Below are positions 13,225-19,100 of a DNA stretch of 38,250 bases, one piece after another (within the stretch, counting starts at the first letter, position 1; the number at the start of each line of letters is the position of its first letter). The position numbers were made by a program, and so were the translations under genes. The notes under the pieces were generated by a model that saw nothing but the letters and a program-made list of their open reading frames with translations, ran no database searches and was not told where the DNA came from. Where the stretch lies: assembly GCA_020445315.1 (NCBI GenBank), contig JAGRGW010000103.1, forward strand, positions 1-38,250, in the 5' to 3' direction. This stretch comes from Gammaproteobacteria bacterium (GTDB taxonomy: Bacteria > Pseudomonadota > Gammaproteobacteria > Chromatiales > Chromatiaceae).

Positions 13225-14070
13225 ATGGATATTGACCTGCTGAAAACCTTTGTCGAGGTCTATCACACGCGCCATTTCGCGCGTGCCGCAGACAATCTGT
13301 TCATCACCCCGTCGGCCGTGAGTGCCCGCATTCGCCAGTTGGAATCGCAGCTGGGTACCGAGCTGTTCGTGCGCGAGCGCAGCAATATCCAGTTGACCAG
13401 GGCCGGAGAGCGCTTCCTGGGACATGCCAGGGGGATGCTCAAGACCTGGGAGCTGGCCTGTTACGAGGTCGCCGTGGATGCGGACCCGCGACCCGGTCTT
13501 ACCCTGCTCGTCGTCCCGGGCCTGTGGGATGGCATCCGGCTCGACTGGCTGCGCGAGTTGCAGGACCAGCAGCCCGACATGTCACTGCGTGTCGAGACCC
13601 TGAACTCCAGCCAGATCGCGACGCGCCTGCAACAGAACAGTGCCGATCTCGGCCTGATGTTGGAGCCGGTGGCCGGACCGGAACTGCAGTTGCAGCAATT
13701 GGGCGAGCTGGAGCTGGTAATGGTGTCGGCCCGGCCCGGCCAGTCCGTCTCGGAGGCGCTGGCGGACCGCTATGTCCTGGTCGACTGGAATACCTCGTTT
13801 CATGCCCAGCATGCCAATGCGTTTCCGGCTGCGCCAACGCCCAGGACCTGGGTGTCCACCGGCCGCCTCGCCTATGACCTCCTGCTGTCCACGGGTGGGG
13901 CCGCGTACCTGCCGGTGCCAATGGTCGCCGATGCGCAACAGGAGCGGCGTCTGCACGCCGTCGCATCGGCACCGCGGATCTCCCTGCGCATTTACGCCGC
14001 CTCTGCGATCTGGTCGGAGCGTGGTGCGCTGATCCGACAGGTGCTGGACATGTTTGGGGCCTCGTTCTGA
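13225..14070 (+). CDS. LysR-family regulator, HdfR-like
   Basis: A 281-residue LysR-type regulator. The N-terminal winged helix (about 1-60) reads MDIDLLKTFVEVYHTRHFARAA and then TPSAVSARIRQLESQLG, close to HdfR-type proteins, followed by FVRERSNIQLTRAGERFL. The rest (about 90-280) is the ligand-binding domain. The ATG at 13225 fits the family N-terminus exactly; the frame is open for only nine more codons upstream. It lies 103 bases before the 2OG-Fe(II) oxygenase gene on the same strand and may control the modification cluster. A second HdfR-like paralogue sits at 34107-34949. The effector is unknown. Confidence 0.85.
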   Translation: MDIDLLKTFVEVYHTRHFARAADNLFITPSAVSARIRQLESQLGTELFVRERSNIQLTRAGERFLGHARGMLKTWELACYEVAVDADPRPGLTLLVVPGLWDGIRLDWLRELQDQQPDMSLRVETLNSSQIATRLQQNSADLGLMLEPVAGPELQLQQLGELELVMVSARPGQSVSEALADRYVLVDWNTSFHAQHANAFPAAPTPRTWVSTGRLAYDLLLSTGGAAYLPVPMVADAQQERRLHAVASAPRISLRIYAASAIWSERGALIRQVLDMFGASF

Positions 14071-14173
14071 TCCCCATCGATCGACCAATTCTTTTTCATC
14101 CGACGTAAAAAAATCGGAGTTGTCGCACTGGCGCGGCAGGTGTCTATTGAGCGGCTTTCGCCGGGTTTCCCCA

Positions 14174-16528: not shown

Positions 16529-17628
16529 ACGTCAGTTGCCGCGAGGCGGTACTGGCGGACCTGGCTGGCCTGGTCGAGCTGGAACGGGCCTGCTTCGACA
16601 GTGATCGCATCAGCCGTCGCCAGCTGCGTCACCTGCTGTCGCGCGCCAATGCGGTGGTGCTGCTGGCCGAGCGCGACGGCAAATTGCTCGGCGACGTCGT
16701 GATGCTGTTCAACCGTGCGACATCGACGGCACGCATCTACTCGATCGCGGTGTCGCCAGAGGCCCGTGGCCAGGGTGTCGCGCGACGCCTGGTCGAGGCC
16801 GCCGAAGAAGCAGCCTGGGAGCGCCAGCGCGCCTGGGTGCGCCTGGAGGTTCGCAAGGACAACGTGGCGTCCATCGGCCTGTTCGAGGGGCTCGGCTACC
16901 ATCGTTTCGGCGAGCACCGTCACTACTACGAAGACCATGCCGATGCGTGGCGCTACGAAAAGACCCTGCATCCATCGAATGGCATCGAACGGTTGCCAAT
17001 CGCCTATTACCGGCAGAGCCTGGATTTCACCTGCGGACCCGCCGCGCTGATGATGGCCATGCACGCGCTCGATCCGGACGTCGAGCCGAGTCGACGGCTG
17101 GAGCTGCGGCTGTGGCGCGAGGCCACCACCATTTTCATGACGTCGGGGCATGGGGGCTGTGGGCCCTATGGCCTCGGCCTCGCCGCGGCCAGGCGTGGTT
17201 TTCGCGTCGAGATCTTCGTGTCTGACCAGGGCGTCCATTTCGTGGAAACGGTGCGGGACCCGGAGAAGAAGCACGTCATTGGCCTGGTCCAGGAGGACAT
17301 GCAGGAGCAACTCGAGCAGCTTGGCGTGGCGATACACAGCGAAGAACTCTCGCCGGCACAACTGCGTACCCGGTTCCAGGCTGGCGCCATTCCGCTTGCG
17401 CTGCTCAGCTCCTGGCAGATTTACGAGGCCAAGGTCCCGCACTGGGTCGTGATCAGCGGGTTCGATGACCACTTTGTTTACGTCACCGACCCGTTCGTCG
17501 ACAGCGAGAAAGGCGAAACGGAGCTTGATTCCATCAACATGCCGATTGCCAATGACATGTTCAGCCGCATTGCGCGTTATGGCCGCCGTGCGTTGCGCGC
17601 CGTCGTCCTGATCAGCAGGGAAAAATGA
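16525..17628 (+). CDS. GNAT acetyltransferase fused to C39-like cysteine peptidase
   Basis: A 367-residue fusion beginning with GTG, whose last two bases belong to the stop of the methyltransferase (16525-16528). Residues about 1-150 are a GNAT domain with the acetyl-CoA motif SPEARGQGVARRLVEAA and the C-terminal VRKDNVASIGLFEGLGY motif. Residues about 155-365 are a papain-like, C39-type domain: Cys170 in DFTCGPAAL, His306 in PHWVVISGF and Asp322 in YVTDPF form a plausible triad. Such fusions are known next to RimK-like ATP-grasp proteins in amidoligase surveys. The GNAT part could acetylate, or form amide bonds on, a substrate, and the peptidase part could trim or cleave a peptide. The stop overlaps the ATP-grasp start by four bases. 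Confidence 0.85.
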   Translation: MNVSCREAVLADLAGLVELERACFDSDRISRRQLRHLLSRANAVVLLAERDGKLLGDVVMLFNRATSTARIYSIAVSPEARGQGVARRLVEAAEEAAWERQRAWVRLEVRKDNVASIGLFEGLGYHRFGEHRHYYEDHADAWRYEKTLHPSNGIERLPIAYYRQSLDFTCGPAALMMAMHALDPDVEPSRRLELRLWREATTIFMTSGHGGCGPYGLGLAAARRGFRVEIFVSDQGVHFVETVRDPEKKHVIGLVQEDMQEQLEQLGVAIHSEELSPAQLRTRFQAGAIPLALLSSWQIYEAKVPHWVVISGFDDHFVYVTDPFVDSEKGETELDSINMPIANDMFSRIARYGRRALRAVVLISREK

Positions 17629-19100
17629 GCGATTACATTCTGTTACTGGAAGACCCCGACAGCTGGCAACCCCCGCCGGCGCTCAGCCTGCCGCTCGTCA
17701 AGGCGAACGACTACCTGACCGATCCACTGTGGTCCGGTCGCAAAGGTCTGAAGGTCCTCAACCTGTGCCGTGACCGCGAGTACCTCGATATCGGGTACTA
17801 CTGTTCGCTCCTGGCTGAGGCACGCGGCCATCGTGTGCTGCCGGCGGTGCGGACGATCAACGACCTCGCGGAGAGCGCCAGTTACCCGGTCGACCTCGAG
17901 GAACTCAACCGCCGGGTGTCCCGCCTGCTGCGTCGGCGTCAGTCCCAGCTCGCCAGTACGCGGCTCGAGTTCGTGCTGGTGTTTGGCGAGGCGCCGCTGG
18001 TCGATCTCAACCCGCTCGGCCGCGCCCTGTACGAACTGTTTCCCGCGCCGCTGTTGCAGGTCGTACTGGAACAGCAGAACCTGTGGCACGTCTCGTCCGT
18101 GCGGATCCTTGCCCCCACGGAGCTTTCCGACGCCGACAGCGAGCGCTTCTCCAGCATGCTCCAGGTACGCCTTGCGGCAAGATGGCGTCAACCACGCGCA
18201 CGACGCCAGGCACGCTATGACATGGCGATCCTGCACAACCCGGACGAGGCCATGCCGCCGTCCAACCGGAAGGCGCTGACGAATTTCATCAGTGCCGCGC
18301 GCAAGGAGGGGATGGAGGCGGAGCTGATCACGCCGCAGGACTTCGATCGCATACCGGAGTTCGACGCCCTGTTCATCCGCGAGACCACGGCGGTCAACGA
18401 TCATACCTACCGGTTCGCGCGCAAGGCGCAACGGGAAGGACTCGTGGTCATGGACGATCCCGACTCGATCCTGCGGTGTGGCAACAAGATTTACCTCGCC
18501 GAGCGTTTGTCCGCCAACCGCCTGCCTGCGCCGAAGACCCTGGTCGTGCACAAACAGGCGGTCGAGAACCTGCCGGAGCAGCTCGGGTTTCCGATGGTAC
18601 TGAAGGTGCCCGACGGGTCCTTCTCGCGTGGCGTGATCAAGGTCGATGACGTCGACGAACTGCGGCGCGGGGTAAGGCAGCTGTTTCGCGATACCGAACT
18701 GGTGCTGGCACAGGCATTCATACCGACCGAATTCGATTGGCGCGTGGGCCTGTTGAACGGCGCAGGTCTCTACGTCTGCCAATACGGCATGGCCCCGGGA
18801 CACTGGCAGATAGTCAACCACTCGGCCAGCCAGAAAGGCCCGAGCTACGGCGATCACCTGACCCTGGCTGTCGAAGACGCGCCGGCAGAAGTGGTCGGCC
18901 TGGCTGTGCGGGCCTCGGCGATGATGGGTGACGGCCTCTACGGTGTCGACATCAAGCAGACGAAGCAGGGACTCAAGGTTATCGAGGTCAACGACAACCC
19001 GAGTATCGATGCCGGTGTCGAGGACACGGTGCTGGGAAATGAACTGTACCGGCGCATCATGGCCGAGTTCGTGCATCGCCTGGACCAGCGCGGCCGCTGA
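17625..19100 (+). CDS. RimK-like ATP-grasp ligase with RLAN-type N-terminal domain
   Basis: A 491-residue protein. Residues about 1-200 resemble the RLAN domain (RimK-like ATP-grasp N-terminal), including DYLTDPLWSG and LNLCRDREYLDIGYYCSLLAEARGH-type wording. The rest is a RimK-type ATP-grasp: PDSILRCGNKIYLAERL, FPMVLKVPDGSFSRGVIKV, an acceptor loop around TEFDWRVGLLNG and the Mg-binding IEVNDNPSID near the end. ATP-grasp enzymes of this group join a carboxylate to an amine through an acyl phosphate, adding amino acids to peptides or proteins. It starts inside the stop of the GNAT/peptidase gene (ATGA), so both are made together. Canonical RimK is encoded separately at 35747. The natural substrate is not known to me. 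Confidence 0.87.
   Translation: MSDYILLLEDPDSWQPPPALSLPLVKANDYLTDPLWSGRKGLKVLNLCRDREYLDIGYYCSLLAEARGHRVLPAVRTINDLAESASYPVDLEELNRRVSRLLRRRQSQLASTRLEFVLVFGEAPLVDLNPLGRALYELFPAPLLQVVLEQQNLWHVSSVRILAPTELSDADSERFSSMLQVRLAARWRQPRARRQARYDMAILHNPDEAMPPSNRKALTNFISAARKEGMEAELITPQDFDRIPEFDALFIRETTAVNDHTYRFARKAQREGLVVMDDPDSILRCGNKIYLAERLSANRLPAPKTLVVHKQAVENLPEQLGFPMVLKVPDGSFSRGVIKVDDVDELRRGVRQLFRDTELVLAQAFIPTEFDWRVGLLNGAGLYVCQYGMAPGHWQIVNHSASQKGPSYGDHLTLAVEDAPAEVVGLAVRASAMMGDGLYGVDIKQTKQGLKVIEVNDNPSIDAGVEDTVLGNELYRRIMAEFVHRLDQRGR

What the first reader, a model, noticed from the sequence alone, without database searches (positions are those of the whole stretch)
13225..19100. LysR-controlled modification cluster: 2OG oxygenase, methyltransferase, GNAT/C39 peptidase and RLAN ATP-grasp ligase
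Five same-strand genes bring together a hydroxylase, a methyltransferase, an acetyltransferase-peptidase fusion and an amide-forming ligase. The last three overlap at stop/start codons (16525-16528 and 17625-17628), so they are made in fixed ratio. The GNAT/C39 plus RLAN-ATP-grasp pair is a described amidoligase association; coupling to this methyltransferase and a prolyl-hydroxylase-like oxygenase is, as far as I know, not assigned a product. The set looks like a pathway that builds and tailors a peptide or amino-acid conjugate, or modifies a protein. No obvious small precursor-peptide gene is visible, so the substrate may be free amino acids or an encoded protein elsewhere.
Basis: partly seen in the sequence, partly recalled or inferred. 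Interest (0 to 1): 0.85.

Follow-up and report, generated by a model that had tools for sequence, protein, structure and literature searches.

The report
Lysine methyltransferase coupled to amidoligase pair
Five neighbouring genes in what is likely a gammaproteobacterium are real, but only the last two form a widespread gene pair; the methyltransferase overlapping them resembles enzymes that methylate lysines of bacterial surface proteins and was found beside the pair in few other genomes, so the three genes would likely modify proteins or peptides rather than make a new small molecule, and the first two genes are likely separate neighbours.

Summary
In detail: five same-strand genes, with GTGA (16525-16528) and ATGA (17625-17628) overlaps. 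One LysR-controlled pathway is only partly supported. GNAT/C39 + RLAN ATP-grasp is a widespread unit (adjacent in 61 of 77 distinct loci). The methyltransferase belongs with the outer-membrane protein lysine methyltransferases (Rickettsia PKMT1/2; KmtA of Acinetobacter). The oxygenase is closest to 4iw3 (from memory, a Pseudomonas prolyl hydroxylase of EF-Tu). Outside the window, the oxygenase was beside neither the methyltransferase nor RLAN in any locus tested; LysR-family genes of low similarity lie near it in 3 of 9 loci. The methyltransferase and RLAN co-occur in 42 other genomes of two samples and are neighbours in 2, of one genus, where GNAT/C39-RLAN-DUF155-methyltransferase is a tight same-strand run. 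A sister lineage seems to carry all three on one 32,640-base contig (inferred from lengths). So a methyltransferase without a steady neighbour was joined to the pair apparently twice. Most likely role: protein or peptide modification (lysine methylation, predicted cleavage and N-terminal acetylation, predicted amide ligation at a carboxyl end). The substrate is unknown; no conserved small precursor ORF was found beside the pair.

The parts
13225..14070 (+). LysR-type regulator; best NCBIfam match HdfR (178 bits, under the 240 cut-off); probably a separate neighbour
14174..14830 (+). 2OG-Fe(II) oxygenase; nearest solved relative 4iw3/4j25 (E 1.5e-42); H134, D136, H196 and R205 in the places of metal and 2OG ligands (roles recalled); predicted protein prolyl hydroxylase
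14957..16528 (+). Class I methyltransferase with PF10119 and C-terminal PF21782 (PKMT_2nd); predicted protein lysine methyltransferase of the outer-membrane PKMT family; D82 and H126 stand where RpPKMT1 has D102 and H146
16525..16528 (+). GTGA overlap: stop of the methyltransferase and start of GNAT/C39
16525..17628 (+). RimI-like GNAT acetyltransferase fused to a papain-like C39 peptidase domain (PF11814); Q164, C170, H306, D322 conserved (catalytic roles recalled)
17625..17628 (+). ATGA overlap: stop of GNAT/C39 and start of RLAN
17625..19100 (+). RLAN domain (PF14401) plus RimK/LysX-like ATP-grasp ligase; conserved K288, K327, D442, E454, N456 (roles recalled)

Best explanation
The locus is a conserved GNAT/C39-RLAN gene pair with a gene for a likely surface-protein lysine methyltransferase overlapping its front end, and it would likely modify proteins or peptides, while the LysR and prolyl-hydroxylase-like genes upstream are likely separate neighbours. 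Predicted steps, none tested: (1) the methyltransferase adds methyl groups from S-adenosylmethionine to lysines of an exported outer-membrane protein, as Rickettsia PKMT1/2 and Acinetobacter KmtA do; (2) the C39 half of GNAT/C39 cuts a peptide bond and the RimI/NatA-like half acetylates an alpha-amino group, possibly the one freed; (3) the RLAN ATP-grasp enzyme activates a carboxyl end with ATP and joins an amino acid to it, most plausibly glutamate, as RimK, LysX and ArgX do on protein substrates; (4) the GTGA and ATGA overlaps couple translation of the three. Shown: the genes, the overlaps, the family relations, the conserved residues and the pattern of linkage. Inferred: every activity, the substrate, and that the three act on one substrate.
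Against: The linkage is rare: 2 of 42 other genomes with both genes. G018, whose pair is 68% identical, has no methyltransferase match at E 1e-30. Contigs of 44,240 and 90,125 bases with close RLAN and GNAT/C39 relatives do not appear among the 120 methyltransferase rows shown. No substrate is known; the own assembly, 80% complete, has no YadA-anchor match and one autotransporter match over cut-off. The top Foldseek match of RLAN is a D-Ala-D-Ala ligase, which acts on free amino acids, and the GCS2/N-formylglutamate variants would also fit a free product. The C39 half was not tested by fold search. LysR-family genes near the oxygenase in 3 of 9 loci weaken 'separate' for those two genes with each other.
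Confidence: 0.5

Rival explanations
1. Chance neighbours: the methyltransferase is an independent gene that landed in front of the GNAT/C39-RLAN pair, and the overlap means no more than shared transcription.
For: No steady neighbour of the methyltransferase: in 90 loci (88 distinct, window included) the largest neighbour family that does not overlap the gene itself is in 13. Methyltransferase and RLAN are not neighbours in 40 of 42 other genomes with both.
Against: Recurrence in genus g162 in a tight same-strand run, and probably on one contig in a sister lineage at 67% methyltransferase identity. By my rough arithmetic about 0.1 of 42 genomes would have the two within 5 kb by chance.
Confidence: 0.35
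2. Small-molecule pathway: RLAN joins glutamate to another amino acid, GNAT acetylates it, and the methyltransferase and oxygenase tailor the product.
For: GCS2 and N-formylglutamate amidohydrolase lie beside RLAN in 6 of 77 loci and ArgA near it in 6 of 77; D-Ala-D-Ala ligases are among the nearest folds of RLAN; linked ATP-grasp and GNAT enzymes are discussed for metabolites (PMC4431377, passages).
Against: The methyltransferase belongs with protein lysine methyltransferases and the oxygenase with prolyl hydroxylases of proteins; neither is conserved beside RLAN; the GNAT fold is nearest to protein N-terminal acetyltransferases.
Confidence: 0.13
3. RiPP-type cluster in which a short precursor peptide near the pair is cleaved by C39, acetylated and ligated.
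For: C39 peptidases fused to ABC transporters remove double-glycine leaders (PMC10318531, passages).
Against: Of 1382 ORFs of 20-80 codons in the 1 kb flanks of 77 loci, the largest cluster spans 10 loci and looks like out-of-frame reading of flanking genes (my judgement); none looked like a precursor. ORFs inside the pair or elsewhere in the genomes were not screened.
Confidence: 0.05

Closest known systems
Outer-membrane protein lysine methyltransferases (Rickettsia PKMT1/PKMT2, Acinetobacter KmtA)
   Same: Class I methyltransferase with PF10119 and PF21782; residues matching the AdoMet contacts D102 and H146, and L103, of RpPKMT1.
   Different: The gene overlaps an acetyltransferase-peptidase gene; I130 of RpPKMT1 is L110 here; substrate unknown. 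KmtA itself was not compared here.
RLAN-type ATP-grasp + GNAT/C39 (DUF3335) pair (Iyer et al. 2009; content recalled, paper not held)
   Same: Same two genes, order and strand, with the conserved residues.
   Different: Preceded by the overlapping methyltransferase; in another branch of the RLAN tree than the genome's other pair on contig C464.
Pseudomonas prolyl hydroxylase PPHD (4iw3; its name and EF-Tu substrate are recalled)
   Same: E 1.5e-42 over residues 20-216, ligand residues kept.
   Different: Activity untested; followed by the methyltransferase gene only here among the loci tested.
RimK, LysX and ArgX ligases
   Same: ATP-grasp fold; TM-score by target length up to 0.85 (5k2m).
   Different: Extra N-terminal RLAN domain; different gene partners.

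Membership tests
[quoted passage not shown]
   PF10119 81.6 bits, PF21782 43.6 bits; 5dnk 8.6e-62, 5doo 1.0e-51
[quoted passage not shown]
   D82 and H126, matched by the alignment; chain numbering of 5dnk taken as one above the paper's (my reading)
[quoted passage not shown]
   L83 kept; I130 is L110
[quoted passage not shown]
   Own genome: one autotransporter match over cut-off, no YadA anchor
RLAN + GNAT/C39 amidoligase pair | RLAN domain fused to RimK-like ATP-grasp | tested here: met
   PF14401 146.1 bits, PF08443 34.1 bits, both over cut-off; fold matches
RLAN + GNAT/C39 amidoligase pair | Adjacent GNAT-C39 fusion gene with Q, C, H, D kept | tested here: met
RLAN + GNAT/C39 amidoligase pair | Makes an amide bond | not testable with these tools
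   no assay
PPHD-type EF-Tu prolyl hydroxylase | Sequence relative with HxD...H and arginine | tested here: met
   4iw3 1.5e-42; H134, D136, H196, R205
PPHD-type EF-Tu prolyl hydroxylase | EF-Tu with the switch-I proline in the same cell | tested here: inconclusive
   No EF-Tu over cut-off in the own assembly, 80% complete; both EF-Tu copies of the same-genus genome G006 have NAPEERERGITI
One five-gene LysR-controlled pathway | Linkage conserved in other genomes | tested here: not met

The most novel reading that the evidence does not exclude
An outer-membrane protein lysine methyltransferase has been wired at least twice into the GNAT/C39-RLAN operon, forming one machine that methylates the lysines of a surface protein, cuts and acetylates its N-terminus and extends its C-terminus with amino acids before export.
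Probability: 0.15. Interest if true: 0.7.

Novelty: new variant of a known kind. Interest (0 to 1): 0.4.

Why it matters
The RLAN ligase occurs in 81 of 369 sampled genomes of the class, and the searches showed no held paper that names its substrate. Coupling to an enzyme class known to act on surface proteins gives a concrete, testable hint: look at methylated outer-membrane proteins for changed N- and C-termini. It also shows how a five-gene 'pathway' read from one genome can shrink to a pair and a coupled gene when other genomes are compared.

Tried and rejected
LysR control of the cluster: no LysR match in 80 methyltransferase loci or in 13 RLAN loci; LysR-family matches in 4 of 77 RLAN loci, the window included. 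The promoter scan found two weak sites, both on the minus strand, against 0.9 (sd 0.9) expected; six terminator-like sites, one of them at 14120-14139 between LysR and the oxygenase, against 4.2 (sd 2.5) expected: neither is informative.

Precursor peptide beside the pair: none found.

Defence system: PADLOC gave only a generic 2OG match and mad2 on the methyltransferase domain (76.8 bits).

Adhesin target: no YadA anchor in the own genome; one autotransporter over cut-off.

EF-Tu in the own genome: none over cut-off.

Fold of the C39 half: both fold searches of the GNAT/C39 model were filled by the GNAT half, so that half is untested.

Plasmid searches: one record opened from each list; neither shows methyltransferase and RLAN together.
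Full report
OBSERVATION. The five genes, their strand and both overlaps are as described: LysR 13225-14070, 2OG oxygenase 14174-14830, methyltransferase 14957-16528, GNAT/C39 16525-17628, RLAN ATP-grasp 17625-19100. The first two gaps are 103 and 126 bases; the overlaps are GTGA and ATGA. 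GC and third-position GC are even over the five genes (0.64-0.66 and 0.77-0.81), so nothing in base composition marks a recent foreign insert.

LINKAGE. (a) 13 RLAN loci, from 12 relatives and the own second copy on contig C464: no match to methyltransferase, oxygenase or LysR in the fetched stretch at E 1e-4 (several stretches are cut by contig ends). (b) Nine methyltransferase and nine oxygenase loci of relatives, searched directly: no RLAN or GNAT/C39 match, and the two families never share a locus (which replaces the ORF-filtered look). LysR-family matches lie near the oxygenase in 3 of the 9 (L060 27% over residues 1-168; L061 and L062 about 42% and 41% over some 60 residues of the DNA-binding part), on the opposite strand, all in the window's genus; the closest relatives of the window's LysR in those genomes are elsewhere. 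(d) Order sample, 210 genomes: methyltransferase in 35, RLAN in 79, both in 21; they are neighbours only in the window's genome; of the other 20, 15 have them on different contigs and 5 on one contig more than 1 Mb apart. (e) Class sample, 369 genomes: methyltransferase 35, RLAN 81, both 23; of the 22 besides the window's, G310 and G525 (one genus, g162) have them about 1 kb apart, G293 has them 22.6 kb apart on one contig, and the other 19 are on different contigs or at least about 369 kb apart. In these samples only the best few candidates per genome were scored, and 'different contigs' is weaker than 'far apart'. Together 2 of 42 other genomes are linked. Spread evenly, about 0.1 would be expected within 5 kb (my arithmetic, 10 kb per 4 Mb genome; genomes of one genus are not independent).

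THE RECURRENT CASE. In L100 (a Gammaproteobacteria MAG; by length and identical matches the same contig as G310:C158) the run is GNAT/C39 4502-5635, RLAN 5645-7120, a DUF155/RMND1-family gene 7142-7936, and the methyltransferase from about 7980, all on one strand. G525 shows the same order (L147). The RLAN proteins of this genus are far from the window's (tree distance 1.8, against 0.24 for P0002 and 0.60 for G018) and the methyltransferases are about 35% identical, so the joining is likely independent. In the protein lists, 32,640 bases is the longest-contig length of RLAN P0002, GNAT/C39 P0124 and methyltransferase P0243. I infer one contig; the order on it was not seen. Shared lengths do occur by coincidence: 2,315 is shared by RLAN P0071 and methyltransferase P0267. 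G018 has no methyltransferase match, and contigs of 44,240 and 90,125 bases with close RLAN and GNAT/C39 relatives are absent from the 120 methyltransferase rows shown, so the coupling is not universal in the clade.

THE PAIR. I compared 78 oriented RLAN loci: the window, the 13 above, four fetched because they hold or might hold the link (L100, L146, L147, L148), and 60 picked by me for diversity. L100 and L146 are one contig, so 77 are distinct. GNAT/C39 lies directly upstream on the same strand in 62 of 78 rows, 61 of 77 distinct; it is elsewhere in the stretch in 10 and not found in 6. Those 6 (L024, L184, L185, L187, L188, L209) carry instead a C39-only protein, RLAN, GCS2 and N-formylglutamate amidohydrolase (the Pfam scan took one representative C39 protein and the two other genes of L024). 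DUF155 occurs in 13 of 77, ArgA in 6 of 77. Oxygenase: 1 of 77, the window. Methyltransferase: 3 of 77 (window, L100, L147, the last two chosen for it). LysR-family matches: 4 of 77 (window, L153, L155, L176). The methyltransferase, in contrast, has no steady neighbour: in 90 loci, 88 distinct, the largest neighbour family not overlapping the gene itself is in 13.

MECHANISM. The families point to proteins: a lysine methyltransferase whose studied relatives act on surface proteins, an acetyltransferase fold that acts on protein N-termini, a cysteine peptidase, and a ligase whose nearest structures include ones solved with protein substrates (LysW, RpsF; titles), though also D-Ala-D-Ala ligases. 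I therefore propose protein or peptide modification, with the methyltransferase translated together with the pair. Glutamate-related neighbours in variant loci suggest glutamate as donor or acceptor and leave a free product open. All activities are inferred.

KNOWN AND NEW. The pair was, as I recall, predicted as an amidoligase system by Iyer et al. 2009 (not held; listed as reference 16 of PMC4431377, passages seen); PMC10318531 (passages) notes that DUF3335 is often fused to GNAT domains. The searches listed no paper on the methyltransferase-RLAN coupling; the library lacks most subscription journals, and I opened only PMC11784438, PMC10318531 and PMC4431377. I file the finding as a new variant of a known kind: known genes, an unusual coupling apparently made twice, and two likely bystanders.

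TAXONOMY. The window is contig C332 of a genome whose same-genus and same-family relatives match named MAG contigs by length (G003:C28 and L074's contig, both 58,680 bases, Gammaproteobacteria bacterium; G022:C660 and L068, both 5,704, Chromatiaceae bacterium; shared identical DNA seen), so it is likely a gammaproteobacterium near Chromatiaceae.

Noticed in passing
own genome contig C464:2153-4801 (L023): A second GNAT/C39-RLAN pair (RLAN 48% identical to the window's) without methyltransferase in the 12 kb read; in a different branch of the RLAN tree.
   Followed up: partly
L024, L184, L185, L187, L188, L209: Variant RLAN loci: C39-only peptidase, RLAN ligase, GCS2 glutamate-cysteine-ligase family protein, N-formylglutamate amidohydrolase in one run.
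   Followed up: partly
13 of 77 RLAN loci, for example L190, L016, L100: A DUF155 (RMND1/Sif2 family) gene sits on either side of the RLAN pair.
   Followed up: partly
L060, L061, L062: LysR-family genes of low similarity lie near the oxygenase gene on the opposite strand in three genomes of the window's genus.
   Followed up: partly
window 34125-34949: Second LysR gene, minus strand, 38% identical to the first.
   Followed up: no
window 9594-11210: Ankyrin repeats followed by two thioredoxin-like domains in one protein.
   Followed up: no
window 11378-13111: PafA-like alkaline phosphatase, 444 bits against a cut-off of 650.
   Followed up: no
L033 (G036:C27): Methyltransferase relative with one in-frame TGA in the match.
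   Followed up: no
L217 (Pseudomonas aeruginosa plasmid): An RLAN ligase gene lies near a glutamate/aspartate transporter and a gamma-glutamyltransferase gene, with no GNAT/C39 annotated in the stretch shown.
   Followed up: no
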